Positions 4,486 through 55,827 of a stretch of DNA of 64,000 nt are shown in pieces. Location: assembly GCA_003856375.1 (NCBI GenBank), contig CP034120.1, positions 682,001 through 746,000 on the forward strand, given 5' to 3'. Under the pieces are notes generated by a model. The model had not been told where the DNA came from. It saw nothing but the letters and a program-made list of their open reading frames with translations, and searched no databases. Both the position numbers and the translations under genes were made by a program. The first letter of the stretch is position 1. Each line of letters starts with the position of its first letter. The DNA is from Glaciecola amylolytica. GTDB lineage: Bacteria > Bacteroidota > Bacteroidia > Flavobacteriales_D > Crocinitomicaceae.

Positions 4486-4819
4486 TGGTTGAAGAATCGA
4501 GGTTTTTGCGGGCATTACTCATTTTGAAGCGAATCGCTACCAAAGCCGGTAAGCCAATATGAATCAATATAAAAAGTACGTAACCAAGTGGTTTCAATTC
4601 ATAGCTGCTTGGAATGATTCCGTTTGAAGAAGCACTACTCAGTCCAAAACCGAAATAATAACTCAACGCAACCTTGGAGTCTAACTGAAAATGTACCAAT
4701 CCTTTATCGTAATGGAAAATTCCGTCATACATCGGAATGGGAACGAAAATGCACAAAATCAATAGAAACAAACCGATTAAAACTCCCAGCAAAAACGGTT
4801 TTTCAGTCAATTTCCTCAT
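4478..4819 (-). CDS. Small membrane protein, unknown
   Basis: The product is 113 residues with hydrophobic segments at about 9-30 and 80-96 separated by a polar loop, so probably two membrane spans. I recognise no family. Its stop overlaps the start of the EamA transporter by 8 bases, which suggests translational coupling and perhaps a shared role, but this is positional inference only. Confidence 0.65.
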   Translation of the reverse strand: MRKLTEKPFLLGVLIGLFLLILCIFVPIPMYDGIFHYDKGLVHFQLDSKVALSYYFGFGLSSASSNGIIPSSYELKPLGYVLFILIHIGLPALVAIRFKMSNARKNLDSSTNE

Positions 4820-4906
4820 GCACTTCTATTTTGGTTCTTAATAATTCTTTTGTAGAGACAAGAGTCAAGATTATTTCTAGTCCTGGGTCTCTTTTAGTCT
4901 ATTTTA

Positions 4907-5572
4907 CTATTTCAAAGCTTTAAATCCTTCTGAAAAGAAAACACGATCGCGGTTAACCCGTTCTTCCATTGCAGTTCTGAATTCATCGTACTTTCCTTCC
5001 GGAATGCAATTAATCGGAAAAAACAGTTGCAAATCTTCAATGTATTCGAAGTAAAGTGTCTGCTGATGCGTTTCAACTCTTCTCAAACCGGAAAAATACA
5101 ACACCCGCACCTCACGATCCGCAACAACGACTGCCTTATGCGTAATTCCTACCCGAAACCACGATTGAGCAATCGCAAGGAAAACCAACTGATCCAGCAC
5201 CATCAATCCATAAACGGCAGCAATCGGCCAGGACTCTTTTGTCAGAAGCCAGGCTGTCATCATCGAAAAAAAAGCAATTACTGCTTCAAGTACTAAGAAC
5301 AAGCGAACCTGTTTCTTTCTTTCAGCTGAAACCGGAGTACTCCAAAGAAAACGCTGAGGCTTTCGGGTCATGAAAACTCCTACCCAGCGATTAGCGGATC
5401 TTCGAATGATTAACAACAACAAAAGCATTGCAACCCCAATAAAGATGTGGAACTTGAAGGGTAAACTCGCTATTGCAATATTGAAAAAGTGAATATCAAA
5501 AGCTACGCAAATGATAAACGCAAAGGCCGGAAAAGAAAAAAATAAGAGTAAAATGTTTATGGAACGATTCAT
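4907..5572 (-). CDS. Membrane protein of unknown function
   Basis: The product is 221 residues. Hydrophobic segments lie at about 5-28, 40-58, 90-112 and 117-137, followed by a soluble C-terminal half of beta character (KAVVVADREVRVLYFSGLRR) that may be a PH-like or YcxB-like domain; that assignment is weak. It starts 5 bases after the stop of the DUF349 gene on the same strand, so the two are probably co-transcribed. No catalytic motif is visible. Confidence 0.65.
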   Translation of the reverse strand: MNRSINILLLFFSFPAFAFIICVAFDIHFFNIAIASLPFKFHIFIGVAMLLLLLIIRRSANRWVGVFMTRKPQRFLWSTPVSAERKKQVRLFLVLEAVIAFFSMMTAWLLTKESWPIAAVYGLMVLDQLVFLAIAQSWFRVGITHKAVVVADREVRVLYFSGLRRVETHQQTLYFEYIEDLQLFFPINCIPEGKYDEFRTAMEERVNRDRVFFSEGFKALK

Positions 5573-5577
5573 CGTGT

Positions 5578-7275
5578 TTACTGGATCATTTTAATCTTTG
5601 CTTTCAACTCTTCTATTTTGCGCTGTGCTGCTGCAATTTTAGATTCTACCTCTTTTTTCAACAAATCCGCTCCTTTTGATTTCGCAAAGAAACCCAGGTT
5701 GTTCTCAAACTGAAGAATGTCTGACTTCAATCGGTTGATTTTATCGTGCAAGTCGTATTTTTCTCTTGCCAAAGCTCTTTCCGAATTCGGATCGCCTTTC
5801 AAGGTATCCAAACGCGCCTGGAACAACATTTTTTCCTGCTCTTCTCCTTCCAGCTTCAATTTCTTGTAGTGGGAATCCAAAGCTTCCTTGTATGCATTGA
5901 AAACACGGTCTTTCTCTTTCATTGGTACATGACCGATTTCATTGAATTCCGTTGCAAATCCTTTCAACAAGGTCAATGCTTCTTTCTTATCTTCCGGAAT
6001 CGTAACCGCTTTGATACGGTCAATCAACTCCATCTTTTTCGTCAGATTCTCTTCAAACTCTTTGTCTTTCGAGCTGAAATGCGTTTGTTTTGATTCGAAG
6101 AAATGGTCACATGCAGCGCGGAATTCCTTCCACAACTTTTGTTCGAAACGCTGACCGGCACTTCCCAGATTTTTCCAATCTTTCTGAATCGTCAAAATCT
6201 GATCTGTGGTCTTTTTCCATTCGGTTGAGTTTTTGATCTCTTCCAGTTTATCGATCAAAGCTTGCTTTTTCGCAGCAACTTCATCAAATTTCCCTCTGAT
6301 CGAATCAAAAAACGATTTCTTTTTAGCAAAGAACTCATCACATGCAGCACGGAATTCTTTCCAAACCTCTTCGTTTTCCTTGCGGGGTCCGAAACCGATT
6401 TTTTTCCATTCTTCCTGCAAAGCCAATAAGGTTGCAGTAGCCGAATCCCAGTCTTTCGAATTGGAAGAGGCAAAATCCTTCACCAAATCGGCTGCTTTTT
6501 TCGCTATTTCCTTCTTCTGCTCCAGATTTGAAGCAAGTTCGGTTCTCTTTTCATCGTAAAAGGCCTGAATACGCGCATAAACTGCACGCACAGCATCCCA
6601 ATAAGAATTTTTCAGGCTTTCCCAAGCTTCATTTCCAACCGGACCTGTTTCGTCCCATTCGTTCTGAAGTGTTTTAATAGCCTGTTCCACATCTTTTACG
6701 TGAGGAGTTGCAGCCAATTCCTGAATCCGGTGGATTACATCCAGTTTCAATTGGTGGTTTCGATGCAAATCATGCTCACGTAATTCGCGGTAGATTTTAA
6801 TATGATAGAAGAATGTCTCCAACAAACGGGAATACTCGGATTGAATATCCTGACGCTTTTCTCTCGGAATATCTCCGACTTCTTTCCAGGCGTCGTGAAT
6901 TTCTTTGTATGCTGTCATTGCAGCACCGATATTCTCTTCCTTTTCAACAACTTCTTTTAGTCTTTCCAACAAAGCTTTCTTGCGGCGTAAATTGGCTTCC
7001 TCAGTTTCTTTCTTTGCTTTCTGCTGACCATTTTTACGATCACGGAACTCGTTATAGAGTTGATAAAACTCATCTCGAATCGGATCGGCAACACGCTCCT
7101 CAACCGGCTCACCTTTTTCCTGAGCTTCGAGTTGTCTTACCTGAAACTGACGATCCTCTTCCAAAACTACGTCTTCAAATTGATTACGCAATTCACTCAC
7201 CTCACGCGCTACTGAAAGCGCATCCTCTTGTTGTACGAGATTTTTTAACGACTCTAATAAACTTGCCTTTTCCAT
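5578..7275 (-). CDS. DUF349 domain-containing protein
   Basis: The product is a 565-residue, highly charged, almost wholly helical protein. Several copies of the DUF349 repeat of about 70 residues are visible, each with a W-K-x-[IL]-G-type element and an F-R-x-A-C-D-x-F-F element, for example EEWKKIGFGPRKENEEVW and EFRAACDEFFAKKKSFF. The C-terminus (~490-565) is a coiled coil. It is probably cytoplasmic, as no signal peptide is present. The family is common in Bacteroidota and its biochemical role is not established. The gene is followed at once by a membrane-protein gene on the same strand. Confidence 0.88.
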   Translation of the reverse strand: MEKASLLESLKNLVQQEDALSVAREVSELRNQFEDVVLEEDRQFQVRQLEAQEKGEPVEERVADPIRDEFYQLYNEFRDRKNGQQKAKKETEEANLRRKKALLERLKEVVEKEENIGAAMTAYKEIHDAWKEVGDIPREKRQDIQSEYSRLLETFFYHIKIYRELREHDLHRNHQLKLDVIHRIQELAATPHVKDVEQAIKTLQNEWDETGPVGNEAWESLKNSYWDAVRAVYARIQAFYDEKRTELASNLEQKKEIAKKAADLVKDFASSNSKDWDSATATLLALQEEWKKIGFGPRKENEEVWKEFRAACDEFFAKKKSFFDSIRGKFDEVAAKKQALIDKLEEIKNSTEWKKTTDQILTIQKDWKNLGSAGQRFEQKLWKEFRAACDHFFESKQTHFSSKDKEFEENLTKKMELIDRIKAVTIPEDKKEALTLLKGFATEFNEIGHVPMKEKDRVFNAYKEALDSHYKKLKLEGEEQEKMLFQARLDTLKGDPNSERALAREKYDLHDKINRLKSDILQFENNLGFFAKSKGADLLKKEVESKIAAAQRKIEELKAKIKMIQ

Positions 7276-7316
7276 GATAAAGCTTTTTAGTGGTTTCTCA
7301 ATTTACAAATAAATAA

Positions 7317-8246
7317 TTAACCAACTACAGTTGACATTTCAAAATTAGTCAGGGAAATAAAACGCTCGATTCGGGCATCAATCTCCTCCTTGGTGATTTC
7401 CAACAAACGCTGTGTTCCGAATTTCTCAACACAAAACGATGCCAAAGCAGATCCTGCAATAATCGCACGTTTCATATTTTCAAAAGACGCATCATCCGTT
7501 GAAGCAATGTATCCGATAAACCCTCCTGCGAAAGTATCTCCGGCTCCTGTAGGGTCGAATACATCCTCCAATGGCAATGCCGGAGCAAAGAATACTTTAT
7601 CGTCCTGAAACAACAAAGCTCCGTGTTCTCCTTTTTTAATAATCAATGTTTTTGGTCCCATATCGCGAATCACACGACTTGCTTTCACCAATGAATATTC
7701 TCCTGAAAGTTGACGTGCTTCTTCATCATTGATGATCAAAACATCGATCAATTTCAACGTTTGCTTCAAATCATCCAATGCGATATCCATCCAGAAATTC
7801 ATGGTATCCATCGCGATCAATTTAGGTCTTGTTGTCAAACGCTCAATAACCTGGCGCTGTACTTGCGGACTCAAATTCCCCAACATCAAATATTCAGCTC
7901 CCTGATAAGATTCAGGAATAACCGGATCGAAATCACCCAACACGTTTAACTCTGTTACCAAAGTATCTCTGGAGTTCATATCGTTGTGATAACGACCAGA
8001 CCAAAAGAAGGTTTTTTCTCCTTTTTTGATTTGCAATCCTTCAAGAGCAACTCCTTTGGAAGCCAAAAGATCCAAGGTTTCCTGCGGGAAATCTTCTCCA
8101 ACCACCGAAACAATTCGTTGGTCCTTTATAAAGTTTGATGCAGACAGTGCAATAAACGTTCCTGCTCCACCTACAATTTTATCTGTTTTTCCGAATGGTG
8201 TTTCAATAGCATCAAAAGCCACACTACCAACTGTCAATAGACTCAT
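7317..8246 (-). CDS. PfkB-family carbohydrate/nucleoside kinase
   Basis: The product is 309 residues with a ribokinase/PfkB fold. The N-terminal glycine-rich GGAGTFIALSASNF motif and the C-terminal signature DPTGAGDTFAGGF are both present; D237 in GAGD is the expected catalytic base. The enzyme would phosphorylate a sugar or nucleoside with ATP in the cytoplasm. The substrate cannot be decided from sequence alone. It is the most upstream gene of the minus-strand block and diverges from the VWD-protein gene across about 210 bases of AT-rich DNA. Confidence 0.88.
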   Translation of the reverse strand: MSLLTVGSVAFDAIETPFGKTDKIVGGAGTFIALSASNFIKDQRIVSVVGEDFPQETLDLLASKGVALEGLQIKKGEKTFFWSGRYHNDMNSRDTLVTELNVLGDFDPVIPESYQGAEYLMLGNLSPQVQRQVIERLTTRPKLIAMDTMNFWMDIALDDLKQTLKLIDVLIINDEEARQLSGEYSLVKASRVIRDMGPKTLIIKKGEHGALLFQDDKVFFAPALPLEDVFDPTGAGDTFAGGFIGYIASTDDASFENMKRAIIAGSALASFCVEKFGTQRLLEITKEEIDARIERFISLTNFEMSTVVG

Positions 8247-8460
8247 TTTCTCAATTTATTTGGGCAAATGTACACAATAATTTAGGTTTAAGTTGCTCGT
8301 TATCCATTAACTATTTATGAGAAATAACTCTTCATCGAATTCATTTGTTTTAAAATTCAATATCTAAATCGATTATTTTGTTTTTATTTTAACATTTTTT
8401 AATTCTTTGATTTTTCGGTACATTTATTGTGTTGTAGCTTTTCGAATTAAACCAACGGTT

Positions 8461-10332
8461 ATGAAAAAACATCTTACATTCTTTGGATTATTCGCTCTTG
8501 CAGCACTAGGAACCCTTCAGGCTCAGGAAAAGTCGAACTTTGGCACAGACTTCCAGTCAATCAGAAAAGACATGGTTGCCTGGGATCAGGTTCGGGGAGA
8601 ATGGCTGGCATCTTCGATGGAAGCGATGGCGAATAAGAGACCAACACCGGATCGTAATTTTCCGGAAGAATACACCCCTGCAGAAATGTTTAGCGCCATG
8701 CCGGAAGCTACACAAAACAAAATCCGGTCGCAAATTCAGCAATCGAGTACCAATACCGACAGCGTTTCGAGAACTCAATGGAATCGTTTGAACAGCTTCA
8801 CCAGCAGAACTCCCGACTGTAAACCGGTTATGGGAAGAACATACGGTGATCCGCATTTAAAGTCTTTTGACGGAGCTACATACTCCTTCCAAACTGTAGG
8901 TGAATTTACTCTGGCTAAATCCGGAAGCGGAAATGTGAACATTCAGGTTCGCCAGCGCCCCCAGTCTGATGACTTTTCTCTAAACACAGCCGTTGCAATG
9001 AATGTTGGCGGTGACCGTGTTTGTTTTTACGCCAATGAAAAACCGGACGGAAACAACACCACTCCGCTTCGTATTGAAGGAGAACCTGTTTACATCGACG
9101 GAGCAAATTATTATCTGGAGCACGGAGGAACAATCAGCGCTTCAGGAAACAACAATTATGTAGTTACATGGCCAACGGGTGAACGCGTAAAACTGGACGG
9201 TTCCAGAACCGGAAACATGGGATTCTACAACATTGCCGTAGAGATTTATCCGTGTGCAGACAACTATGAAGGAATTCTTGGAAATGCAAACGGAAGAAGC
9301 TCCGATGATTTTGATATTCGTGGAGGTTCAATGACTGCTTCCCGCTGGAACATGGGTGTTTTTGGTTCATCGAATCAAAACGATCAGATGTTGGAAAAAG
9401 AATACCTTGCTTTTTTATCAAAGGATTTCGCGATGCAATACCGAATCCTGCAAGAAGAATCTCTGTTTGACTACGGATTCAACCAAAGCACTTTTGCTTT
9501 TACCGATTTATCTTTTCCACGCGTTCACCGCACATTGGGAGATTTGAGTCCGGACGATCGCAGAAGAGCACAAAGAGAATGTGAACGCAGAGGATTTTCA
9601 GGTTCGGATTTAAGCGCATGTATGTACGACAATGGGTTCTTACGTATCGAACCGACTCCGAAACCAAACATTCCGAACAGAACAACCGGAAGACAAATGG
9701 AACCGGTAAGAACTCCTGCACCGAACGTGAATCCGGGTCAAAAACCATTCAGAGAACGTTACCCGGCGCCGGAAATAAGACAAGGTGATTCCAAAGTCAC
9801 TCCGACAACAACTACCCGCGAGGTTCTTCCGATCGGTCAAAACAATCCGGAAGGAGGAAATACTGTTAAACCCGGTACTGCAGAACCTATCAACGGAGGA
9901 CGCACTATAACAAAAGGAGAAGGTGTTAAACCAGTTTCTCAGACTCCGGAAGTTGTTTCACCAGAAAGCGGAACCAGAACAACAAGACCTGTTTTCAACG
10001 GCGAAAACACCAAACCTGTCAAAGTAGAAAATCCAAGCACTCAATCCGGGTCAGGTTCTTCTACTCCAATAGAAACGGTGAGACCCGTTAGAGTAGAAAA
10101 TCCTAATCCTGTGGTTAAACAGCCTGAAGTTATCAGACAACCAGAGGTCATCAGACAACCTCAGGTTACCAGACCAGTGATTACCCAACCGATCAGAACG
10201 GAACCAAAATATACACCGCCGCCAAGCAAACCCGTGTCGACGCCGGTACAACGCCCGGTAAGCGCTCCGGTCTCGACACCAAGTTCTACACCTTCGAAAA
10301 CTATTTCAACACCAGTCAGAAGAGGTGGTTAG
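8461..10332 (+). CDS. Secreted VWD-domain protein with Pro/Thr-rich tail
   Basis: The product is about 623 residues. I start it at the ATG at 8461 because MKKHLTFFGLFALAALGTLQAQ is a clear signal peptide; the frame is open further upstream. After an N-terminal region of about 110 residues comes a von Willebrand type D domain (~125-290) with YGDPHLKSFDG, a central beta region, and GILGNANGRSSDDF near its end. The last ~210 residues are low complexity, rich in Pro, Thr, Val and Arg with repeated PVRVENP and PEVIRQP units. VWD domains are best known from animal mucins and occur sporadically in bacteria. No T9SS sorting domain is visible. A UUCG-loop terminator follows. Confidence 0.85.
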   Translation: MKKHLTFFGLFALAALGTLQAQEKSNFGTDFQSIRKDMVAWDQVRGEWLASSMEAMANKRPTPDRNFPEEYTPAEMFSAMPEATQNKIRSQIQQSSTNTDSVSRTQWNRLNSFTSRTPDCKPVMGRTYGDPHLKSFDGATYSFQTVGEFTLAKSGSGNVNIQVRQRPQSDDFSLNTAVAMNVGGDRVCFYANEKPDGNNTTPLRIEGEPVYIDGANYYLEHGGTISASGNNNYVVTWPTGERVKLDGSRTGNMGFYNIAVEIYPCADNYEGILGNANGRSSDDFDIRGGSMTASRWNMGVFGSSNQNDQMLEKEYLAFLSKDFAMQYRILQEESLFDYGFNQSTFAFTDLSFPRVHRTLGDLSPDDRRRAQRECERRGFSGSDLSACMYDNGFLRIEPTPKPNIPNRTTGRQMEPVRTPAPNVNPGQKPFRERYPAPEIRQGDSKVTPTTTTREVLPIGQNNPEGGNTVKPGTAEPINGGRTITKGEGVKPVSQTPEVVSPESGTRTTRPVFNGENTKPVKVENPSTQSGSGSSTPIETVRPVRVENPNPVVKQPEVIRQPEVIRQPQVTRPVITQPIRTEPKYTPPPSKPVSTPVQRPVSAPVSTPSSTPSKTISTPVRRGG

Positions 10333-10335
10333 TAC

Positions 10336-10362
10336 AAAAGGAGTCTTCGGACTCCTTTTTTT
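10336..10362 (+). terminator. Intrinsic terminator with UUCG tetraloop
   Basis: The stem AAAAGGAGTC/GACTCCTTTT closes on a TTCG loop and runs into eight Ts. It starts four bases after the stop of the VWD-protein gene, so it very probably ends that transcript. Confidence 0.9.
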
Positions 10363-10522
10363 ATGCTTGCATGTTCTGTTTGTAGTTTTTTGCCAGTTTT
10401 ATTGAGAGCGCCAGAAAAATCATACGAATTCCTTCAAAAATTGAAACAAATTAAAAATCGAACGTTAATTACTATTTGAGGCACTGGTGTTTATTCAGTT
10501 GGTTTCGGTGTAAATTTGATTT

Positions 10523-13201
10523 ATGAAGTGGAAGAAGAGGTTGGTGAAGACGCTAAAATGGTTGTTTGCAACTGTTTTATCACTCGTTTTGCTTATTTCC
10601 ATCCTGCTTTACGTTTTCAAGGACGACATTATTGACTACGCCGTTTCCGAAATCAACAAAACACTGAAAACCAAGGTCACGGTAGAAAAAATTGATCTGA
10701 CGTTCTGGAGCACCTTTCCCAATTTAAGTCTCGACTTCAACAAAGTTTTTATTCAGGATGCCTTGCCGAATTCCACACATCGCGATACGCTTTTGTATAC
10801 GGAACAGATCCGGCTCAAGTTCAATCCGATGGATATCTGGAACGAGAACTACAATGTCAAGAAAATCGTAATCAAGCCGGGAACGGTACAGTTGAAAGTC
10901 AACGAAAAAGGAGAAGTCAATTACGACATTTTCAAAGAATCCGAATCGGGAGAAAAAACAAATTTCAAACTCAAACTCGAATCGATCCGGGCCAGCGGAT
11001 TGCGTTTTTCCTACCTGAACAAAATCAATGAAAGCAGTTACAAAGCGAAAGTTCAGGAAATTCATTTAGCCGGAAATTTCACGCAGGACAAATTCGACAT
11101 TGCAACGGAAGCCGATTTTTATGTTCAGCGTATTCAGCATGGTTTGGTTCCCTTCATCATCAATCAGCAGGCATCTACCGAAGTAAATATTCACATCGAT
11201 CAGATCAAGGAAACGTTCAGTATTCCGGGCGGCGAGTTATTGCTTTCGGGAATCCCATTCGATTTCGACCTGAGTGTAGACACTACAGAAGTGAAATTGC
11301 GTCTTGATGCAAATAAGATTCCGCTGGCAGATCTTGCAAACAAACTGGCGATCAAAGAAGTGAAAACTGTTTCCGAATTGAAAGGATCCGGAACTGCCTC
11401 TTTTCACCTGTCACTCCAAAATGCAACCAAAAGAGATTCTTACCCGAAAGTAGATTGCAATTTTTCGATCGATAACGGGCGCTTGACTGAGCCGACGAAA
11501 GGATTGACCCTGAGAGACATCGATCTGAAAGGCTATTATTCCACCCTGAAAGGAAAAGGCAAAGAGGAATTGGTGATTCAAAATGTTGCCTTTCAAACAA
11601 TCAGCGGTCCTTTTTCCGGGAATTTATCCGTACGTCAATTTTCAAAACCAAGTTATCGCGGTTCGGCAAAAGGCTCTTTGGATCTGGAAGTCATTCACGG
11701 CTTGTTCCGCATTCCGAAAATAGAAGAACTTACCGGGCAAGTGAAAGTGAATACGAATTTTCACCTCGAAACGGTTTTTGAAAACAATGAACCTTCCATT
11801 GAAATTGTGGATGGAAACGGAAATGCCTTGCTCGACAATGTAGATTTCCGCCTTCAAAACGATTCCAGAAAGTTCTACGACATCTACGGAAATCTGATTC
11901 TGAACCGCAGCGAAGCCGTTCTGGAAGAGCTTAAGGTTCATTTGGGCGAATCGGATCTGGAGCTGAACGGAAGTTTTGATTACATCGATCAGTTCCTGCA
12001 GGATAAACACACCCTGGATGTTTCCGTAATTGCTGAAAGCCGGAAGATCAACCTCAAAGATTTCACCAATACCATCGCCGGAGATCCGAAAACCAACCTC
12101 GAAATCCGGGAATGGATGCTGCCGACACTGATTAACGGAAGTGTGAAACTGAATGTGGACGCCATTCACATGGATCACCACACTTTTTCGCAGATCAACG
12201 GTGAAATGACGGTCGGAAACAGAAGCATTGTCATTCAGAAACTGCATGGAATCACTGCCAACGCAACGGTTCGCGGAAGTCTAGCGGTCGTAGAATCTTC
12301 ACCTGAATATTTTCAGCTTGCCACCAACCTGAGTTCGAAAGACATTTACTTTAAACCGATTTTCCGGGAATGGAATAATTTCGATCAGGATGTGATCAAA
12401 GAAGACAATATCAGCGGGCGCGCAGAAGCAATTCTGGATTTAAAAGCTCCTTTCGACCTGCATTACGGAATTTTGAAAGACGAACTTGAGGCTCAGGTTC
12501 AATTGAAAGTTATTGGCGGACAGTTGAAAAACGTAAAAACGTTTACAGCGCTTACAAAAGATCTGAAAACGACTAAGACGAAAATGATCCTGAAAGCAAG
12601 AGAAATTGATGCACTTGGCGACAAACTCAACAACATTCAGTTTGAAACCCTGGAGAATACCATTTTCATCAAAAAGAGTGTGATCATCATTCCGAAGATG
12701 GAAATCAAATCCAATGCGCTTAATATTTCGGTGGATGGAAAGCACAAATTCAACAACGACATCGATTACAAGTTTGCCTTCCGTTTCCGTGAATTGAAAC
12801 AGCAAAAAGACGAATCGGAATTCGGGATTGTGGAAGACGACGGAACGGGAATCAAGGTCTTTGTCCGCATGTACGGAAACCTGAATGATCCGATCATCGA
12901 ATGGGACAAAACTTCGCGAAAGGAAGAAGCAAAACAAAACCGGGAAGAAGCGAAAAAAGAAGCCATTTCAATTTTGAAATCGGAATTGGGCTTGTTCAAG
13001 AAAGATACAACGATCAAAAAATACCTGCCTCCGAAAAAGGAACATGAAGTATTGGAAATACAATTCGGGAAGGAAGAAGAAGTGAATCCGTTCGAGGAAA
13101 AAAAGAAAATCGAAAAGGAGAAAAAAGGATTGAAAAAGTTTGGCGAAAAACTCAAGGAGAAATCCAAACCAACTGAAAAGGAAGAATTCATTGTCGAATA
13201 G
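10523..13201 (+). CDS. AsmA-family protein
   Basis: The product is 892 residues. One membrane segment at about 8-30 is followed by DDIIDYAVSEINKTLKTKVTVEKIDLTFW, the usual entry to AsmA-type repeats. The remaining ~750 residues are mostly beta strands, as in AsmA/TamB/YhdP proteins, which span the periplasm and are linked to phospholipid transport and outer-membrane homeostasis (family knowledge). The last ~110 residues are very rich in Lys and Glu, forming a charged tail. A TAAATTTG box lies five bases before the start codon. The marC-like gene follows 57 bases downstream and may be co-transcribed. Confidence 0.85.
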   Translation: MKWKKRLVKTLKWLFATVLSLVLLISILLYVFKDDIIDYAVSEINKTLKTKVTVEKIDLTFWSTFPNLSLDFNKVFIQDALPNSTHRDTLLYTEQIRLKFNPMDIWNENYNVKKIVIKPGTVQLKVNEKGEVNYDIFKESESGEKTNFKLKLESIRASGLRFSYLNKINESSYKAKVQEIHLAGNFTQDKFDIATEADFYVQRIQHGLVPFIINQQASTEVNIHIDQIKETFSIPGGELLLSGIPFDFDLSVDTTEVKLRLDANKIPLADLANKLAIKEVKTVSELKGSGTASFHLSLQNATKRDSYPKVDCNFSIDNGRLTEPTKGLTLRDIDLKGYYSTLKGKGKEELVIQNVAFQTISGPFSGNLSVRQFSKPSYRGSAKGSLDLEVIHGLFRIPKIEELTGQVKVNTNFHLETVFENNEPSIEIVDGNGNALLDNVDFRLQNDSRKFYDIYGNLILNRSEAVLEELKVHLGESDLELNGSFDYIDQFLQDKHTLDVSVIAESRKINLKDFTNTIAGDPKTNLEIREWMLPTLINGSVKLNVDAIHMDHHTFSQINGEMTVGNRSIVIQKLHGITANATVRGSLAVVESSPEYFQLATNLSSKDIYFKPIFREWNNFDQDVIKEDNISGRAEAILDLKAPFDLHYGILKDELEAQVQLKVIGGQLKNVKTFTALTKDLKTTKTKMILKAREIDALGDKLNNIQFETLENTIFIKKSVIIIPKMEIKSNALNISVDGKHKFNNDIDYKFAFRFRELKQQKDESEFGIVEDDGTGIKVFVRMYGNLNDPIIEWDKTSRKEEAKQNREEAKKEAISILKSELGLFKKDTTIKKYLPPKKEHEVLEIQFGKEEEVNPFEEKKKIEKEKKGLKKFGEKLKEKSKPTEKEEFIVE

Positions 13202-13257
13202 ACTTAAAGATCGAATTACGAATTATATGTATTATTACTTAATCAAAATAGGTTCAT

Positions 13258-13920
13258 ATGACCGGAATTCAGTCTTTTCTTGACATGCTCTTTATTGGAG
13301 TTATTGCATTATTTCCCGTAGTAAATCCGATCGGGTCTGCTTTTATCGTAAACCCGTTTTTATCGAATTTATCTGCTCAGGAAAAGCGAAAAGCTGTTAC
13401 CAAAATCACCCTTTACGCCTTTACCTTATGTACTATTTCATTTTTTGCAGGACATTGGATTCTTCAATTATTTGGAATTACGATTCCCATCGTTCAGCTT
13501 GCCGGGGGAATCATGATCTGTAAAATTGGCTGGGAACTGCTTTCTTCAGATAAAAAGAACGAAAAAGTTTCCGCGGAAACAGATTTGAATGAAAATTCGA
13601 ACTATTCCAATGTGAAGGATAATTTATTTTACCCGATCACCTTCCCGATCACAACCGGAGCAGGTTCTTTATCTGTTCTCTTTACATTAAGCGCCCACAG
13701 TGCCGATAAACACATCAATTTGTACCTCATCAATACCGCTGCAATTTTACTGGCGATTATCATCATGTGTGTACTCATTTATTTCTTCTTCTTAAATACA
13801 AAAAAAATCATCCGGGTAATTGGCCCCGACGGAGAGAAAATCCTCAACCGGATTATTGCATTTCTTATTTTTTGTGTCGGGCTGCAAATTGCAGTAACGG
13901 GGATTAAATCGCTTATTTGA
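13258..13920 (+). CDS. MarC-family integral membrane protein
   Basis: The product is 220 residues with six hydrophobic segments. FPVVNPIGSAFIVNPF near the N-terminus and FPITTGAGSLSVLF in the middle are the two repeated N-P/T-G motifs of the MarC/NAAT family. The first E. coli member was once named for multiple antibiotic resistance, but the function remains unclear. Its end faces a convergent T9SS cargo gene across a long inverted repeat. Confidence 0.9.
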   Translation: MTGIQSFLDMLFIGVIALFPVVNPIGSAFIVNPFLSNLSAQEKRKAVTKITLYAFTLCTISFFAGHWILQLFGITIPIVQLAGGIMICKIGWELLSSDKKNEKVSAETDLNENSNYSNVKDNLFYPITFPITTGAGSLSVLFTLSAHSADKHINLYLINTAAILLAIIIMCVLIYFFFLNTKKIIRVIGPDGEKILNRIIAFLIFCVGLQIAVTGIKSLI

Positions 13921-13935
13921 TAACGATTTTTTTCT

Positions 13936-14084
13936 CCTCCCCCTTAGTCCCCCTCCAAAGGGGGAAACCTGGATTCCACTTTAGAAGATTAAACTTTTCT
14001 CCGATTATTTAAATCCGGTAATATATTTCTTTCTTTGAAAGAGAGTTTAAAATCTCCCCCTTTGGAGGGGGATAAAGGGGGAGG
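13936..14084. repeat. GC-rich inverted repeat, 30-bp arms, ~89-bp spacer
   Basis: The left arm (13936-13965) and right arm (14055-14084) are inverted copies matching at 28 of 30 positions. Each arm holds a CCCCCTCCAAAGGGGG core that can itself fold. The element sits between two convergent genes. It could terminate transcripts from both sides or be a dispersed MITE/REP-like unit; I see no transposase. Confidence 0.75.
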
Positions 14085-14110
14085 ACTTTGTATCAAGAGG
14101 ACTTTGTCTA

Positions 14111-42167: not shown

Positions 42168-42920
42168 ATGAAGACGAAGAGAGTATTAATTATTGATGAC
42201 GAGATTGATGCCAGGCGTGTTATTTCCAAATATTTGGAGCGCTATTTCCCCAATTTTCAGGTTCTTGGAGAGGCAGATTCCTATAAATCGGCCGTTCAAC
42301 TGATCAATGAAACGGAGGCAGATTTGATTTTTATTGATATTAATCTTGGTGACGGAACCGGATTTGACGTGTTGGATGAAAGTGACGCATTTGCTGCACA
42401 GATCATTTTTACGACGGCCTTCGACCAGTATGCGGTAAAAGCTTTCAGATATCAGGCTCTGGATTATCTGATGAAACCGATCGATTCGGAATTGTTTGTA
42501 GAAGCGGTGAATCAGGCTTTGGATAAAGTGAGAGAACGCCGTTCCATGAGTGCCGATCAAATCATGATTTCTTACGGAAACGGAGAGCGGAAAATTTCGA
42601 TTCCAACAACGGACGGAATGTGTTTTGTGCGCCTGGATTCAATTATTTGCTTCGAAGCGGATAGTTCGTACTGCAAAGTCTTTTTGGATGATTCAAAAGA
42701 GATATTGGTGTCCAAACCCTTGAAGTTCTTCGACGATAAACTGCGGTCAAACGTTAATTTCATCCGTCCGCATAAATCATTCATCATCAATATGAAATTT
42801 GTAGATGAATATTTGAAGGAAGAAGGAGGATATATCAAATTGAAAAACGGATTGAAAATCCCGATTTCACGCCAGAAGAAAGAGGATGTGATTCGTGATT
42901 TGCAAACGCATTTTTTATAA
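42168..42920 (+). CDS. LytTR-family response regulator
   Basis: The product is 250 residues. The receiver domain (1-125) has the acidic pair D10/D11, the phospho-acceptor D57 in LIFIDINLGDG, and K103 in YLMKPID. A LytTR DNA-binding domain (~145-248) contains SIICFEADSSYCKVFL, FIRPHKSFIINMKFVDEY and IPISRQKK. Its natural partner is a LytS-type kinase; two such kinases without an adjacent regulator lie about 6.8 and 9.9 kb downstream, so a functional link is plausible but unproved. A hairpin shared with tolC ends the gene. Confidence 0.93.
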   Translation: MKTKRVLIIDDEIDARRVISKYLERYFPNFQVLGEADSYKSAVQLINETEADLIFIDINLGDGTGFDVLDESDAFAAQIIFTTAFDQYAVKAFRYQALDYLMKPIDSELFVEAVNQALDKVRERRSMSADQIMISYGNGERKISIPTTDGMCFVRLDSIICFEADSSYCKVFLDDSKEILVSKPLKFFDDKLRSNVNFIRPHKSFIINMKFVDEYLKEEGGYIKLKNGLKIPISRQKKEDVIRDLQTHFL

Positions 42921-48370: not shown

Positions 48371-48835
48371 TTACTTTTTATTGTAGAAAATTTCAAATTG
48401 GTCGGCAGATATTTCTTTTGATTTATGGATTAATTCCGAAAGGATCTGCTCAAAATTAGCATGCAGACTCGGATCGAGCAATCCCATAAAGTAGTCATTT
48501 GTTTCTTTGATTCCGTTTTCGATTTCATCAATCCACGGTTCCGCTTTCGGGGTAATATTCAGCATATGCTGTCTGCGGTCTTTCGGGTTTGTTTTTCGTT
48601 CGATGAATCCGTCGGCCGCCAAAGCATCCAGGATTCTCACCAATGAAACCTTGTCAGTCAGAATGTGATCTGCAAGTTCCTGCTGACTGATATTGCCGTT
48701 GTTTTTCCCGATTACATACAAAGGATAATAATAGCGTTCAACCGGCGTATGCGACATTCTGTCTGCCAGCTTACCGATGTATTGTTTGGTTAGAAAACTA
48801 AAAGCTCTCCCCAAAGGCCATTCATTTTGAGTCAT
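48371..48835 (-). CDS. MarR-family transcriptional regulator
   Basis: The product is 154 residues with a winged helix. QQELADHILTDKVSLVRILD is the recognition region and ERKTNPKDRRQHMLNITPKA is the MarR wing. It heads the efflux operon and probably represses it until a small ligand binds. The divergent kinase gene starts about 125 bases away, so its promoter region is shared with the operon. Confidence 0.93.
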   Translation of the reverse strand: MTQNEWPLGRAFSFLTKQYIGKLADRMSHTPVERYYYPLYVIGKNNGNISQQELADHILTDKVSLVRILDALAADGFIERKTNPKDRRQHMLNITPKAEPWIDEIENGIKETNDYFMGLLDPSLHANFEQILSELIHKSKEISADQFEIFYNKK

Positions 48836-48923
48836 ATACCAAGAATAGTTTATAAAGCTAACTATTAAAGATGTTAACTAGTTCTGTTTTAACTAAAAAA
48901 TGACCGAAATAACCGGATTCTGT

Positions 48924-48931
48924 TAAATTTG
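48924..48931 (+). promoter_or_regulatory. Candidate -7 box for kinase copy 1
   Basis: TAAATTTG matches the Bacteroidota TAnnTTTG element; the surrounding 30 bases are almost the same as upstream of copy 2. With transcription starting about 6 bases later, the TTG at 48962 is the first well placed start codon. No clear TTTG -33 element was found. Confidence 0.45.
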
Positions 48932-48961
48932 CCACTAAAACGAATTTCATACATTCTCAGT

Positions 48962-51871
48962 TTGGTTAAATACATTTTATGGGGACTCTTTCTTGTCAGA
49001 ATTGCTGCAATAGTATCTGCACAAACAAACCGTATTTCATGGGAATACAATTATGACCACTTTGGGATAAAAAGTGGTCTGCCAAGTTCTGAGTCGTATC
49101 AGGTTCATCAGGATCAATCAGGTTTGTTGTGGGTATTGACAGATCGGGGAGTTGTGAGGTATGACGGGTTTGAGTTTCAAAAATACACGATCGAAAACGG
49201 ATTGTGCGACAATGTTAATTTCAGAATTTCAGAAGATTCAAACGGAGGTGTCTGGTTTTTGGGATACAACGGCTTGCTGAGTGTTTTCAAAGACGGGAAA
49301 ATGCAGGCTTACAAGTACAATCATCTGCTAAAGAAAACTTTTTCTGTTGCTCAGAATGCACATATTTCATTTTGTGTGCTGAAAGATCATTCTCTGATCT
49401 ATAGCTTATATGGTAAAAGGATGATGATTCGCATCAGTGAAAATGGTAAAATAGAACGATTGTCTGACAAGTTTCCTACGACAACAGGTTTTTATGAATT
49501 CGGAGATGAACTGGTGTATTTCAATAGAAGTAAAACATCTCATCTCGATAACATGTTTTTCATCCGGAATCAGAAACGGTTTTTTGCAGGAAAAGTACAT
49601 AATAACGGAGTGTGCAGGGCAAAAAAGCACAAAGGATATAGTTTCATAATGACCGATCTGAAATTGTACTTGAATGATCAGCAGCAATTCAAGCTCTTAT
49701 CAGGTGATCTGGAAGTCATTTCATTGGATGCAGACAAGGAGTTTTTATATGTCGGATTTTACAAAGCAGGTATGAAGAAGTACCGTTTTGATCCTCAAAC
49801 CAAGTCACTCATTTTTGTTCAGCATTACCTACCGGATTATTCGGTAACATCCACATTTAAAGATTTAAATAATACCTTATGGATTACGACCCTTGAAAAA
49901 GGATTGTTTTCAATTTCTGATGAAGCATTCAGGCAATTGGCAATTAATGAAAAGATTTTGTCCGAAGAGGTGCGTTTTATCTACGGAAATAAAAAGAAAG
50001 TTGTGATTGCTCATTATGTTGGTAAATGGCAGCAGTTGTACCCTCCGTATTTATGCAAAGATGTCGGGAAGATCTTTCGCCGCTTCAATTTGCTGCCAGT
50101 AAACGACGGATTTGCATTTCAGAAGAATGTTGTGGATTGGAGTGATTGGAGAGATGTGGATTGGAGCGACTGGAAAGATGTAGATGCTACTTATGCTTCC
50201 AATCCGAATTATGTAAACGGTTCTTTTGTTGTGGGAATTAATTTCTTTGCGACTGAAATTATTGAGGTGAATGGGAAGGAAGAGTATCGGATTGATCTGA
50301 AACCAGCACGTGAGTATAATCTTTCCAGAGCTTATGTTTGGTTCCACGTGATGGAGCACAAAAAAGTATTTATTGTGTATGACAGCGGACTAATGGTTTT
50401 TGATATTAAAAATTCAAAGACATCCGGAAAATACAGACCCGTTTTAAATAAGGCGGTTAAAAAGTTGAAGTACAATCCGTTCTGGGGCTTAATAGCGATA
50501 TCTGATACTGAAGGGCTTTTCAGGATCGATATGAATAAAGAAACAGCTTCGGTATTTGCTTCGAATCTGAACCTGGGAAAACAGCTTTTGAATATGTTCT
50601 TTGACGAGAAAAACCGCCTGTGGGTGGTGAGTGAAAGAGGGCTGTTTCTGCTTGCAAAGAAAAATAATCAAGTTGTTTGTCAGAAGTTTATCAATAAAAA
50701 ACTGTTATCCAGTGCGGAAGTAACGGATTTGTATGCTTATAACGATGTGCTTTATCTGGCAACCAAATTCGGGGTACAGAAAATAGATGTTTCGAGGGTG
50801 AAAAAAGAGTCAAAGGAATGTCCTGTTAAAATCTTCTCCATTCGCACGTTTTCCAATAACAAAGAACTGGATCAAACTGAAAAGATTCCCGCAAATACTG
50901 ATCTGATCAAAATAAACCTGCTGAACAAAAACCTGGATAGAAATGCAACATACAAGTATCGTTTTGGAAAGGATCAGACCTGGATCAAGTCGGATAAGGG
51001 AGAAATCATTCTGAACAATCCGTCGGCTGGAAAGTATGATCTGGAGCTTACGTATTTAAATGCATTAGGAACGTGGTCGAAACCGGTACAAATAGCTGCC
51101 TTCGAAGTGGAAAAAAATATTTTCCTCCGATGGTATTTTATCCTGTTCTATGTTGCATCTGTGATGATTCTGTTTTACATCGTTTTAAAACTCTCGATTC
51201 AATATGTGAATAAGAAAAATTACATTTTTAACCGGATGATAGAACTGGAACAAATGGCTTTATCAGCGCAGATGAATCCGCATTTTATTTTCAATTCATT
51301 GAATTCAATTCATAGTTTCCTGCTGTATGAAGAAAATGAGAACGCAGAAAGATACCTCATCCGGTTTTCTAAATTAATCCGGCAGACGCTTTCCAATTCG
51401 AGGATGTCTTATATCACGGTGGAAGAGGAATACGAAATGTTGAAGAACTACATTCTTTTGGAACAGATGCGTTTCAAAAGCACATTTACTTTTGAAATTG
51501 ATTGTGATTTAAAACGTTTGCCTTTTCATCCGTTTATTCCTCCGATGCTGATTCAGCCTTATGTGGAAAATGCAATTATTCACGGATTGATCAAGCGGGA
51601 AGAAGGCGCAAAGTTGTTCCTGAAATTTTATATGGAAGATCAATTATTGCATGTTTTGATCGAAGATAACGGAATCGGGTATTCAGAATCAATGAAGCGT
51701 CAGCGGGATACCGGACATAAATCCTATGGAACACAAATCACGGAAGAACGTTTGAAATCCTTAAAAGGAAAAAATAAGGAAGGTTATAGTGTTACAATCA
51801 GCAATGTGGATGATTCAAACCCTGAATTTCCGGGAACCCGTGTAATTCTGACAATTCCAATTCCGAATTAA
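48962..51871 (+). CDS. LytS-type sensor histidine kinase with two-component propeller, copy 1
   Basis: The product is about 969 residues from the TTG at 48962. No ATG lies in frame near the start; this TTG gives a good signal peptide (VKYILWGLFLVRIAAIVSAQ) and is conserved in copy 2. A periplasmic sensor of two-component-propeller blades follows (LPSSESYQVHQDQSGLLWVL; TSTFKDLNNTLWITTLEKGL), then a Y_Y_Y domain (TYKYRFGKDQTWIKSDKGE), one membrane helix (~720-745) and a His_kinase/HATPase_c module. H774 in QMNPHFIFNSLNS is the phospho-acceptor; IEDNGIGYS binds ATP. A 24-base unit (WSDW-type) is repeated twice at ~50138-50185. It likely signals to a LytTR regulator. Confidence 0.88.
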   Translation: MVKYILWGLFLVRIAAIVSAQTNRISWEYNYDHFGIKSGLPSSESYQVHQDQSGLLWVLTDRGVVRYDGFEFQKYTIENGLCDNVNFRISEDSNGGVWFLGYNGLLSVFKDGKMQAYKYNHLLKKTFSVAQNAHISFCVLKDHSLIYSLYGKRMMIRISENGKIERLSDKFPTTTGFYEFGDELVYFNRSKTSHLDNMFFIRNQKRFFAGKVHNNGVCRAKKHKGYSFIMTDLKLYLNDQQQFKLLSGDLEVISLDADKEFLYVGFYKAGMKKYRFDPQTKSLIFVQHYLPDYSVTSTFKDLNNTLWITTLEKGLFSISDEAFRQLAINEKILSEEVRFIYGNKKKVVIAHYVGKWQQLYPPYLCKDVGKIFRRFNLLPVNDGFAFQKNVVDWSDWRDVDWSDWKDVDATYASNPNYVNGSFVVGINFFATEIIEVNGKEEYRIDLKPAREYNLSRAYVWFHVMEHKKVFIVYDSGLMVFDIKNSKTSGKYRPVLNKAVKKLKYNPFWGLIAISDTEGLFRIDMNKETASVFASNLNLGKQLLNMFFDEKNRLWVVSERGLFLLAKKNNQVVCQKFINKKLLSSAEVTDLYAYNDVLYLATKFGVQKIDVSRVKKESKECPVKIFSIRTFSNNKELDQTEKIPANTDLIKINLLNKNLDRNATYKYRFGKDQTWIKSDKGEIILNNPSAGKYDLELTYLNALGTWSKPVQIAAFEVEKNIFLRWYFILFYVASVMILFYIVLKLSIQYVNKKNYIFNRMIELEQMALSAQMNPHFIFNSLNSIHSFLLYEENENAERYLIRFSKLIRQTLSNSRMSYITVEEEYEMLKNYILLEQMRFKSTFTFEIDCDLKRLPFHPFIPPMLIQPYVENAIIHGLIKREEGAKLFLKFYMEDQLLHVLIEDNGIGYSESMKRQRDTGHKSYGTQITEERLKSLKGKNKEGYSVTISNVDDSNPEFPGTRVILTIPIPN

Positions 51872-51920
51872 TTGATAATTAATCGGACAAAATTGAAGAG
51901 GCTTTTTTTGACTTTTCAAT

Positions 51921-51968
51921 TTACCCGTGCATCGTTTCCGATTTTCCATTAAAGAAGCTTCGAATTCC
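51921..51968 (-). pseudogene. Remnant of the 3' end of the miaE-like gene
   Basis: The 48 bases after kinase copy 1 match the last part of the miaE-like gene at 55067-55124, apart from a 10-base deletion. The same stretch lies after kinase copy 2 as the true end of that gene. It shows the duplication once included the neighbour's 3' end. Confidence 0.8.
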
Positions 51969-52064
51969 TTGAAAGCCATTTACCTGGAAAAGTAAAGGCG
52001 AACGATTAAAGATGTTAGCTGGTTCTGTTTTAATTGAGAACTGACCGAAATAACCGGATTCTGT

Positions 52065-52072
52065 TAAATTTG
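52065..52072 (+). promoter_or_regulatory. Candidate -7 box for kinase copy 2
   Basis: TAAATTTG lies in the same setting as in copy 1 (GGATTCTGTTAAATTTGCCA), 31 bases before the likely TTG start at 52103. Its conservation through the duplication supports a promoter. Confidence 0.45.
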
Positions 52073-52102
52073 CCACTGAAACGTATTTCATACACTCTCA
52101 GT

Positions 52103-54991
52103 TTGAATAAGAACATTTTATGGACTCTCATTTTTGTCGGAATCGCTGCGACAATATCTGCACAAGTAAATCGTATTTCGTGGGAATACAACTATGATCA
52201 TTTTGGTATAAAAAATGGTTTGCCAAGTTCTGAGACCTATCAGATTCATCAGGATAAATCAGGTTTGTTGTGGATTCTGACCGATCGGGGAGTAGTGAAG
52301 TACGACGGGTTTGAATTTCAAAAATATACCACTGAGAACGGATTGTGTGATAACGTCAATTTCAGAGTTGTTGAAGATGAAAACGGCGGAATTTGGTTCG
52401 TCGGATTTAACGGTTTGCTAAGTGTTTTCAAAGATGGGAAAATGCAGGCTTATAAATACAATCACGTGCTCCGAAAAGCCATTGTCCTTAGTAGTAATAC
52501 CAACATTTCAATTCACGTAAATAAAGACAACTCTGTTGTTTATTGTGTTTTCAGGAAGAAGATCATTTCAGTTAGTAAAGATGGAAAGGTCAAAGACCTG
52601 GCTAAAGGAGTCGTAAATATCGGGTGTTTTCTTGAATTCGGAAATGATATCCTATGCTTACAGAAACAATCACGTAGCGGAATTATAGCGAACTACTATT
52701 TCCGGAATAAGAAGCTGGTTTTTGCCGGAAATTTATTGCTTTCCGGTACAACAAGATTAAAGAAGCATAAAAACTTTTGCTTTGTGATGTCCGACTACAA
52801 ATTGTATTTGAATGATGGTGAAAAGTTTAAACCGCTTGTGGTGGATCACCAAGTTATTTCATTGGATTCGGACAAGCAGTTTTTATATGTGGGGATGTAT
52901 AAAAACGGGATGAATAAATACCGGTTCGATCCGAAAACAAAAGAACTTGCTTTGGTCCGGCATTATTTACCGGGTTGTTCTGTCAGTTCAACCTATAAGG
53001 ATTCAAATGGTACTTTATGGATAACCACGCTGGAAAAAGGTCTTTTTGCCATTTATGATGAAGCATTTAAGCAATTGGCCATTAATGGAAAAAACTTATC
53101 GGAAGAAGTCCGGTTTATTAATGGAAACAAACAAAAGGTAGTCGTAACGCATTATGTGGGTAAATGGCAGCAGTTGTATCCGCCGTTTTTGTGTAAAGAC
53201 GCCGGGAAGATTGTTTATAGGTATAATTTGCTGCCGGTAGGTGATGGATTTTTATTTCGGAAAGACATTGTTGATTGGAGTGATTGGAAAGATGTAAATG
53301 CAACCAGCATTGTAAACCCGATTTACGCCAATGATTCGTGCGTTTTTGGAATTTTAAATAATACGACTAAGGATCGGATTGTAAAAATGACAAAATCGTC
53401 CCTGTTTGTTTATAAAATCAAACATCTTCAAACTTCAAAGTTGATTGGTTCCTATCTTTCATTCCATTTCGATTCAAGTAAAAAAGTGTTTGTTTTGTTT
53501 CATGAGGGAGTTTTTGTGTTTGATGTCGAAGGTCCAAACATTGCGAATAATTACAGAACTGTTTTAAGGAAAAGAATCAATGAGATAAAGTATAACAAAG
53601 CTTGGGGATTGATCGCGTATTCGGGTTTCGAAGGACTCTTTCAAATTAATATGAAAGAAGAGAAGTATGCGAAATTTGCCCCCGGAATAAATATCGGCAC
53701 ACAAATTTCAAGTGTTTTTTTTGATGAAAAGAACCAGCTCTGGATTGCGAGTGAAAAAGGGATATTTGTGCTGGTAAAGAAAGAGGGAAAAATTACCGTG
53801 AAATCTTTCCTGAACAAGAAATTGTTGTCTAGCTCCGAGATAATGAGTTTGTATGCTTATAAGGATGTACTTTATCTGGCAACCAAATTCGGGGTTCAGA
53901 AGATAAACTTCCGGGAGATTAAAAAAGAAAAATTTGATTGCCCGCTTTCCGTTTTTTCGATCAGGGCATTTGCTAAGAACGAAGAGATACCGGGAGATAA
54001 AGTATTCTCAGCAAATACTGATCTGATTAAAATTCGCCTTTCAAACAAATACCTGAGCAAGTACCGGGTTTACAGGTATCGTTTTGGAAAAGATCAAACC
54101 TGGATCAAGTCGGATAAAGGAGAAATCATTCTGAATAATCCGACAGATAGAAAGTACGACCTGGAGATTTCGTATTTGGATAACTTTGATTCCTGGACAA
54201 AGCCGGTTCATATAGCTGGTTTTGAAGTGGTCAGGAACGTGTTTCTACGTTGGTACTTTATGGTGGTTTATGCTTTGATCGTTATCATTTTATTTTACAT
54301 CATTTTGAAACTTTCCATTCGATACGTCAATAAAAAGAACTACATCCTGAACCGGATGATTGAATTGGAGCAGATGGCCTTATCGGCACAAATGAATCCG
54401 CATTTTATTTTCAATTCATTGAATTCGATTCACAGTTTTTTATTGTTTGAAGAAAATGAAAATGCAGAAAAATACCTGATCCGGTTTTCTAAATTAATCC
54501 GGCAGACTTTGGGTAACTCAAGAAAGCAATACATTACCCTGGAAGAAGAGTGTGAAATGTTGAAGAACTACATTCTTTTGGAACAGATGCGTTTCAAAAG
54601 CACATTTACTTTTGAAATTGATTGTGATTTAAAACGTTTGCCTTTTCATCCGTTTATTCCTCCGATGCTGATTCAGCCTTATGTGGAAAATGCAATTATT
54701 CACGGATTGATTAAACGGGAAGAAGGCGCAAAGTTGTTCCTGAAATTTTATATGGAAGATCAATTATTGCATGTTTTGATCGAAGATAACGGAATCGGGT
54801 ATTCAGAATCAATGAAGCGTCAGCGGGATACCGGACATAAATCCTATGGAACACAAATCACGGAAGAACGTTTGAAATCCTTAAAAGGAAAAAATAAAGA
54901 AGGTTATAGTGTTACAATCAGCAATGTGGATGATTCAAACCCTGAATTTCCGGGAACCCGTGTAATTCTGACAATTCCAATTCCGAATTAA
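52103..54991 (+). CDS. LytS-type sensor histidine kinase with two-component propeller, copy 2
   Basis: The product is about 962 residues from the TTG at 52103 (signal peptide ending IAATISAQ). The order is the same as in copy 1: propeller sensor, Y_Y_Y domain, one membrane helix, His_kinase with H767 in QMNPHFIFNSLNS, and an ATPase domain ending IPIPN. The sensor half has diverged clearly from copy 1, while the last ~145 residues, from EMLKNYILLEQMRF to the end, are identical. It has one WSDW unit where copy 1 has two. The two kinases could sense different signals and share a downstream regulator. Confidence 0.88.
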   Translation: MNKNILWTLIFVGIAATISAQVNRISWEYNYDHFGIKNGLPSSETYQIHQDKSGLLWILTDRGVVKYDGFEFQKYTTENGLCDNVNFRVVEDENGGIWFVGFNGLLSVFKDGKMQAYKYNHVLRKAIVLSSNTNISIHVNKDNSVVYCVFRKKIISVSKDGKVKDLAKGVVNIGCFLEFGNDILCLQKQSRSGIIANYYFRNKKLVFAGNLLLSGTTRLKKHKNFCFVMSDYKLYLNDGEKFKPLVVDHQVISLDSDKQFLYVGMYKNGMNKYRFDPKTKELALVRHYLPGCSVSSTYKDSNGTLWITTLEKGLFAIYDEAFKQLAINGKNLSEEVRFINGNKQKVVVTHYVGKWQQLYPPFLCKDAGKIVYRYNLLPVGDGFLFRKDIVDWSDWKDVNATSIVNPIYANDSCVFGILNNTTKDRIVKMTKSSLFVYKIKHLQTSKLIGSYLSFHFDSSKKVFVLFHEGVFVFDVEGPNIANNYRTVLRKRINEIKYNKAWGLIAYSGFEGLFQINMKEEKYAKFAPGINIGTQISSVFFDEKNQLWIASEKGIFVLVKKEGKITVKSFLNKKLLSSSEIMSLYAYKDVLYLATKFGVQKINFREIKKEKFDCPLSVFSIRAFAKNEEIPGDKVFSANTDLIKIRLSNKYLSKYRVYRYRFGKDQTWIKSDKGEIILNNPTDRKYDLEISYLDNFDSWTKPVHIAGFEVVRNVFLRWYFMVVYALIVIILFYIILKLSIRYVNKKNYILNRMIELEQMALSAQMNPHFIFNSLNSIHSFLLFEENENAEKYLIRFSKLIRQTLGNSRKQYITLEEECEMLKNYILLEQMRFKSTFTFEIDCDLKRLPFHPFIPPMLIQPYVENAIIHGLIKREEGAKLFLKFYMEDQLLHVLIEDNGIGYSESMKRQRDTGHKSYGTQITEERLKSLKGKNKEGYSVTISNVDDSNPEFPGTRVILTIPIPN

Positions 54992-55066
54992 TTGATAATT
55001 AATCGGACAAAATCGAAGAGGCTTTTTTTGACTTTTCAATTTTACATTTTCACTTGTCAGTTCAAT

Positions 55067-55657
55067 TTACCCGTGCATCGTTTCCGATTTTCCGTATTTA
55101 TCCATTAAAGAAGCTTCGAATTCCAAAAACTTTTTCCAGCGCGCATCTACATCAATTCCGTCTCCGTATTTGCGTGCGAAATTCAGGAAAACAATGTAAT
55201 GACGTGCTTCGCTTTCCATCAGACTGCGGTAAAAAACACGCAGATCTTCGTCGTTGATTTCTTCTGAAAGGATTTTGAAACGTTCACAGCTTCTTGCTTC
55301 GATCATGGCCGCAAACAGCAATTGGTTTACCATGTGCGATTTTTTCGGATTTCCGGAGTGAGTGACTTTGAGAAAATCCAACAGATCGTGAACATATGGA
55401 TCCTTGCGTTCGAATCCGAGTTGGTATCCGCGTTCCAGAATTTTGTCGTGAACCATTCCAAAATGCTCCATTTCTTCCTGACAAATTTCAATCATGGCTT
55501 TGACCATGTCGGGATATTGCGGATACTGAACAATGATAGAAATGGCATTACTTGCTGCTTTTTGTTCGCAGAAAGCATGATCCGTCAATATTTCCTCGAT
55601 GTTTTTCTCTACAATATTTACCCAACGCGGGTCAGTCGGCAGTTTTAAACCTAACAT
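55067..55657 (-). CDS. miaE: tRNA-(ms2io6A)-hydroxylase, MiaE-like
   Basis: The product is 196 residues from the ATG at 55657 (MLGLKLPTDPRW); 14 more codons upstream are open but lack family features. It is a ferritin-like four-helix protein whose di-iron ligands can be read as E in CEQKAASN, E-E-x-x-H in QEEMEHFGMVH, E in MIEARSCERF and E-x-x-H in MESEARHY. It hydroxylates the isopentenyl group of modified A37 in some tRNAs. The 3' end is duplicated as a remnant after kinase copy 1. Confidence 0.88.
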   Translation of the reverse strand: MLGLKLPTDPRWVNIVEKNIEEILTDHAFCEQKAASNAISIIVQYPQYPDMVKAMIEICQEEMEHFGMVHDKILERGYQLGFERKDPYVHDLLDFLKVTHSGNPKKSHMVNQLLFAAMIEARSCERFKILSEEINDEDLRVFYRSLMESEARHYIVFLNFARKYGDGIDVDARWKKFLEFEASLMDKYGKSETMHG

Positions 55658-55827
55658 AATTGAAATTTTACGGCAAATTTCGTTATTTCTTGAATTCAAA
55701 TCCTAGTTTTGTTAGAATAATGAAGTAATTATTGTTCCCGCGGATTGCACAGATGTCGCAGATTCATACTTAATCTGCATTCTCTTCGGAAATAATTTTT
55801 ACTCTGACTAATTTAAATAAGTTGAAT

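What the first reader, a model, noticed from the sequence alone, without database searches (positions are those of the whole stretch)
48864..55124. Tandem kinase duplication with near-identical 3' ends
Two ~3.1-kb units each carry a LytS-type kinase. The sensor halves have diverged, but 51434-51921 and 54554-55041 differ at only about four positions; those inside the gene are synonymous. Such a sharp boundary suggests recent gene conversion that keeps the catalytic part equal while the sensors evolve apart.
Basis: partly seen in the sequence, partly recalled or inferred. Interest (0 to 1): 0.6.

Follow-up and report, generated by a model that had tools for sequence, protein, structure and literature searches.

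The report
Tandem sensor kinases sharing converted tails
Two neighbouring bacterial sensor genes have drifted far apart in the part that senses but recently copied the same stretch of their signal-sending end from one to the other, and a related species did the same independently with three copies, so such receptors can diversify while their shared output stays the same.

Summary
Two tandem Reg_prop/His_kinase genes (48929-51871, 52034-54991) are about 67% identical in DNA over their first 836 codons. From 51434/54554 they become 99% identical for 488 bases, with three synonymous differences and one non-coding one. The left edge is sharp (21 differences in the 46 bases just before it). Orthologues in sibling species (apparently genus Fluviicola) are only 67-72% identical over the same stretch, so selection alone is excluded. 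The shared tract runs past the gene into a copied scrap of the neighbouring miaE gene and stops at the old tandem-duplication junction (51968|51969). That points to a recent conversion from copy 2 into copy 1. A sibling species with three copies shows the same pattern independently: tails 95-97% alike, while the sensor halves come from different lineages (AU p 7e-5 on DNA, 2e-6 on protein). A single LytTR response regulator at 42168-42920 is found with this kinase across the genus, which suggests several sensors feeding one output. The tract covers the ATP-binding part only, not the phospho-accepting histidine motif. This is a clean, recurrent case of partial gene conversion. Whether selection favours it is untested.

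The parts
48929..51871 (+). Copy 1: beta-propeller (Reg_prop) / Y_Y_Y / His_kinase sensor kinase; the TTG start is probably a little downstream of the listed one
   Evidence: TTG conserved in relatives
52034..54991 (+). Copy 2: paralogous sensor kinase of the same architecture
51434..51968 (+). Converted tract in copy 1 (inferred recipient): kinase codon 836 to stop, 3' flank, and a miaE 3'-end scrap with two deletions (26 and 10 bases)
54554..55124 (+). Matching tract at copy 2 (inferred donor), reaching into the 3' end of intact miaE
51969..52012 (+). Remnant of the MarR start / kinase upstream region: the old tandem-duplication junction lies at 51968|51969
   Evidence: aligns to 48827-48871 with score 19, 0 of 2000 shuffles reach it
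48864..48928 (+). Upstream region of copy 1 with TAnnTTTG-like promoter element, about 90% identical in copy 2 (52005-52070)
55067..55699 (-). miaE, tRNA hydroxylase, convergent neighbour; its 3' end is the source of the scrap
42168..42920 (+). LytTR response regulator, probable common partner of both kinases
   Evidence: co-occurs with the kinase across the genus
48371..48835 (-). MarR regulator, divergent neighbour; left end of the duplicated unit

Best explanation
An old tandem duplication, running from the MarR start to the miaE 3' end, produced two sensor kinases. Their sensors diverged. Recently, homologous recombination copied about 570 bases from copy 2 (ATP-binding end, 3' flank, end of miaE) over the matching part of copy 1. 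The left edge falls in the conserved kinase region and the right edge at the end of homology, which is the duplication junction. The same process acted independently in a sibling species with three copies. Because one LytTR response regulator most likely serves all copies, identical transmitter ends cost nothing and may be favoured: many sensors, one output. Shown here: tract, edges, excess over orthologues, junction, recurrence, regulator co-occurrence. Inferred: donor direction, shared partner, selective benefit.
For: Sharp edge and 99% tract. Orthologues at 67-72% in the same stretch. Synonymous identity 98% in tract against 58% elsewhere. The miaE scrap matches this genome's own miaE and differs from sibling miaE genes, while the intact miaE protein stays 92-95% identical to most siblings, so copy 2's side is native. 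The duplication junction is recognisable. In G006, three copies have tails 95-97% and sensors 60-64% identical in DNA; sensor halves are rejected as one clade (AU p 6.9e-5 DNA, 2.1e-6 protein), tails are one clade 99/98. Seven other distinct tandem kinase pairs have no near-identical tail. There is a single close copy of the LytTR regulator per genome; both it and the kinase are absent from G005 and G010.
Against: There are no other strains of this species to date the event or prove its direction. Whether A and B sensors are sisters is unresolved (DNA 95/98 yes, protein tree unresolved), so import of a divergent sensor half after a recent duplication is not strictly excluded. The tract omits the histidine motif, which weakens the idea of selection for identical partner recognition.
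Confidence: 0.85

Rival explanations
1. Recent duplication of the whole unit, followed by replacement of one sensor half with a divergent version from another species (sensor import rather than tail conversion).
For: Predicts the same contrast between halves. In G006 the sensor halves have clearly different ancestries. MarR and RND proteins next door show different nearest relatives, so recombination in the region is plausible.
Against: The MarR-start remnant at the junction is diverged from the present MarR start, as expected of an old duplication. No sampled species carries either sensor above about 67% DNA identity. Base composition of A and B sensor halves is alike. It needs foreign DNA, whereas conversion needs only the neighbour.
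Confidence: 0.12
2. Strong purifying selection on the ATP-binding domain, without recombination.
For: Kinase ends are generally better conserved than sensors.
Against: Orthologues are 67-72% in the tract; synonymous sites and the non-coding flank are nearly identical between copies too.
Confidence: 0.01
3. Unequal crossing over or template switching between sister copies (expansion and contraction) rather than non-reciprocal conversion.
For: Copy number varies from 1 to 3 at this locus. In G006 the homogenised block runs across kinase end, intergenic DNA and the start of the next gene.
Against: In both species the sensors between the blocks all remain distinct; simple unequal crossing over would duplicate or delete sensors. 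It differs from conversion mainly in molecular detail.
Confidence: 0.1
4. Assembly artefact that copied one tail onto both genes.
For: A 488-base repeat can mislead short-read assemblies.
Against: The two tracts differ at four positions and by two deletions with direct-repeat ends; the genome is one contig of 4.6 Mb; a separate assembly (G006) shows the same with more accumulated differences.
Confidence: 0.02

Closest known systems
Concerted evolution by gene conversion in prokaryotic paralogues (surveyed in PMC6053082; rRNA operons in PMC8022953, known here from its abstract only)
   Same: Paralogues in one genome are more alike than orthologues between species, including at synonymous sites
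   Different: Here only the catalytic end is homogenised and the sensor half is not; the words kinase and two-component do not occur in the main text of the survey
Rhs genes, diversified by C-terminal displacement (PMC2935791; title and general knowledge, paper not read)
   Same: One gene family with a conserved segment and a variable segment separated by a boundary
   Different: There the variable part is C-terminal and displaced; here the variable part is the N-terminal sensor and the shared part is the enzyme end
Bacteroidota Reg_prop / Y_Y_Y / His_kinase sensor kinases with LytTR regulators
   Same: Domain order and a LytTR regulator near the locus
   Different: Several tandem kinases with a single conserved regulator some 6 kb away, and mosaic ancestry

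Membership tests
Partial gene conversion / concerted evolution | Paralogues more similar to each other than to orthologues in the tract | tested here: met
   99.3% against at most 72.5%
Partial gene conversion / concerted evolution | Sharp tract edge and excess identity at synonymous sites | tested here: met
Partial gene conversion / concerted evolution | Different gene trees inside and outside the tract | tested here: met
   Met for G006 (AU p 6.9e-5 outside, clade 99/98 inside). For A/B the sensor tree is unresolved, but A-B path length differs about 100-fold (0.7 against 0.007)
Partial gene conversion / concerted evolution | Non-reciprocal transfer shown directly | not testable with these tools
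   needs strains or an experiment
LytS-type sensor histidine kinases (PF06580) | His_kinase domain over the gathering score, with NPHF motif and N/G boxes | tested here: met
   75.7 and 80.1 bits against 25.2; motifs
LytS/LytTR two-component system | Cognate LytTR response regulator | tested here: inconclusive
   Regulator at 42168-42920 passes PF00072 and PF04397 and co-occurs with the kinase; phosphotransfer not testable

The most novel reading that the evidence does not exclude
In this genus, tandem sensor kinases evolve as exchangeable modules: sensor halves of old, separate lineages are repeatedly joined to one species-specific transmitter end, so a single response regulator gains or swaps inputs without partner specificity having to be re-evolved. 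A second kinase array of the same genome, where the ATP-binding end of one kinase groups with a different lineage from its sensor, would be another case.
Probability: 0.3. Interest if true: 0.65.

Novelty: new member of a known kind. Interest (0 to 1): 0.42.

Why it matters
After duplication, two-component kinases are usually thought to separate their output specificity. Here the output end is repeatedly re-made identical while the sensors diverge, in two species independently, which points to a way of adding inputs to one pathway without insulating it. The locus, with 1, 2 or 3 copies in sibling species and one regulator, is a natural test system for that idea.

Tried and rejected
Purifying selection alone: rejected by the orthologue comparison. 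A purely recent duplication of the whole unit: rejected because about 67% DNA identity in the sensor half cannot accompany 99% in the tail without replacement. The idea that 51969-52012 is further miaE sequence: rejected (1812 of 2000 shuffles score as high); it matches the MarR-side upstream region instead. A general rule for tandem kinases: not supported, since seven other distinct pairs in held loci show no near-identical tail (the pair in this genome's second array has some excess, 72% against 46% synonymous). Literature searches for conversion between tandem histidine kinases listed no described case.

Full report
WHAT IS THERE. The window lies in a single-contig genome of 4,606,342 bases. 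The genus appears to be Fluviicola (Crocinitomicaceae): a contig of sibling G001 has the same length, 290,389 bases, as a contig of a named Fluviicola record. Two tandem genes, 48929-51871 and 52034-54991, encode sensor kinases with Reg_prop propeller repeats and a His_kinase domain; Y_Y_Y is detected in copy 1. The locus order RND efflux genes - MarR - kinase(s) - miaE - pafA - tig is conserved in G001, G006 and G008, and partly in others.

OBSERVATION. Sliding identity between the copies is about 40-92% up to 51433 and 65% in the 60 bases starting at 51385, then 97-100% to near the stop codon. The four differences over 488 bases are three synonymous third positions and one base after the stop. 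Codon shuffles never approach such a run. The tract continues, with a 26-base and a 10-base deletion in copy 1, to 51968/55124. Both deletions lie between short direct repeats in copy 2. The last stretch is the 3' end of miaE, which is complete at 55067-55699.

THE REQUESTED TEST. Within the genome the tails are 99.3% identical in DNA. Against nine orthologous copies from seven sibling species they are 67-72.5%. Third-position identity between A and each orthologue is the same inside and outside the tract (p 0.19-0.73), whereas A against B gives 98% and 58%, p 1.5e-23. Selection alone is excluded.

ANATOMY OF THE EVENT. The 44 bases after the miaE scrap, 51969-52012, align with the MarR start and kinase upstream region of copy 1 (score 19, none of 2000 shuffles reach it) and not with more of miaE. 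So 51968|51969 is the old tandem-duplication junction, and the converted tract ends where homology ends. The scrap matches this genome's miaE and not the sibling versions. An unconstrained scrap from the old duplication would have decayed, so it was refreshed with the tail. Intact miaE remains a well-conserved protein, so the donor was most likely copy 2. This direction is inferred.

RECURRENCE. Sibling G006 has three tandem copies. Their tails are 95-97% identical from about the NPHF motif onward, and the block runs across the intergenic DNA into the start of the next gene. Their sensor halves are not one clade (AU p 6.9e-5 on DNA; 2.1e-6 on protein): copy a groups with G008 and G002, copy c with G012 and G007. 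The tails are one clade (99/98). Other tandem kinase pairs serve as controls and show no such tail. The two copies in G004 show instead a more alike 5' stretch.

FUNCTION. A LytTR response regulator at 42168-42920 has 87-95% identical copies in every sibling genome that holds the close kinase orthologue; G005 and G010 lack both. G004, G009 and G011 hold more distant versions of both, with the regulator next to the kinase in G004 and G011. One close regulator copy per genome faces one, two or three kinases, so a shared output is the likeliest arrangement. The tract includes the N box and G box but starts 159 bases after the NPHF motif at 51275 in this genome, whereas in G006 it starts at about that motif.

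MECHANISM AND LIMITS. Best reading: ectopic gene conversion between tandem copies, tolerated or favoured because the transmitters serve the same regulator. Sensor import after recent duplication is the main rival and would need strain data. Direction, timing and benefit are not shown.

A SECOND ARRAY. At 3,260-3,266 kb of the same genome two further kinases have sensors orthologous to those of siblings, but the ATP-binding end of one groups with that of G013 (100/98), and its sensor-based clade is rejected for that end (AU p 0.02). This hints that sensor/transmitter recombination is not confined to one locus.

NOVELTY. Concerted evolution by gene conversion is known in prokaryotes (PMC6053082). 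The text searches made here listed no described case for tandem sensor kinases, but the library is incomplete.

Noticed in passing
42168-42920: LytTR response regulator with no kinase directly beside it; it co-occurs with the tandem kinases across the genus and in some siblings lies next to them.
   Followed up: yes
L180 (G000:C1:3256000-3272000), 4240-10152, minus strand: Second tandem kinase pair in the same genome: sensors are orthologous to those of siblings, but the ATP-binding end of one kinase groups with that of G013; AU p 0.02 against its sensor-based clade.
   Followed up: partly
L057 (G006:C1:367000-386500), 5268-14110: Three tandem kinases with homogenised tails, intergenic DNA and, for b and c, signal-peptide region, but sensors of different ancestry.
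   Followed up: yes
L065 (G004:C218), 6772-12682: Tandem kinase pair whose early 5' codons are 81-88% identical while most of the rest is about 40-65%: a possible older conversion at the 5' end.
   Followed up: no
48929-49000 and 52070-52140: The kinases of this locus appear to start with TTG, conserved in siblings (some open frames have no early ATG); a TAnnTTTG promoter-like element lies just upstream of each copy.
   Followed up: partly
51908-51968: Decaying scrap of the miaE 3' end with two deletions between short direct repeats (TTCAATTT and TCC).
   Followed up: yes
G005 and G010 (about 2.9 Mb genomes): The two smallest genomes of the genus lack both this kinase and its close regulator while keeping miaE, pafA and tig.
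   Followed up: partly
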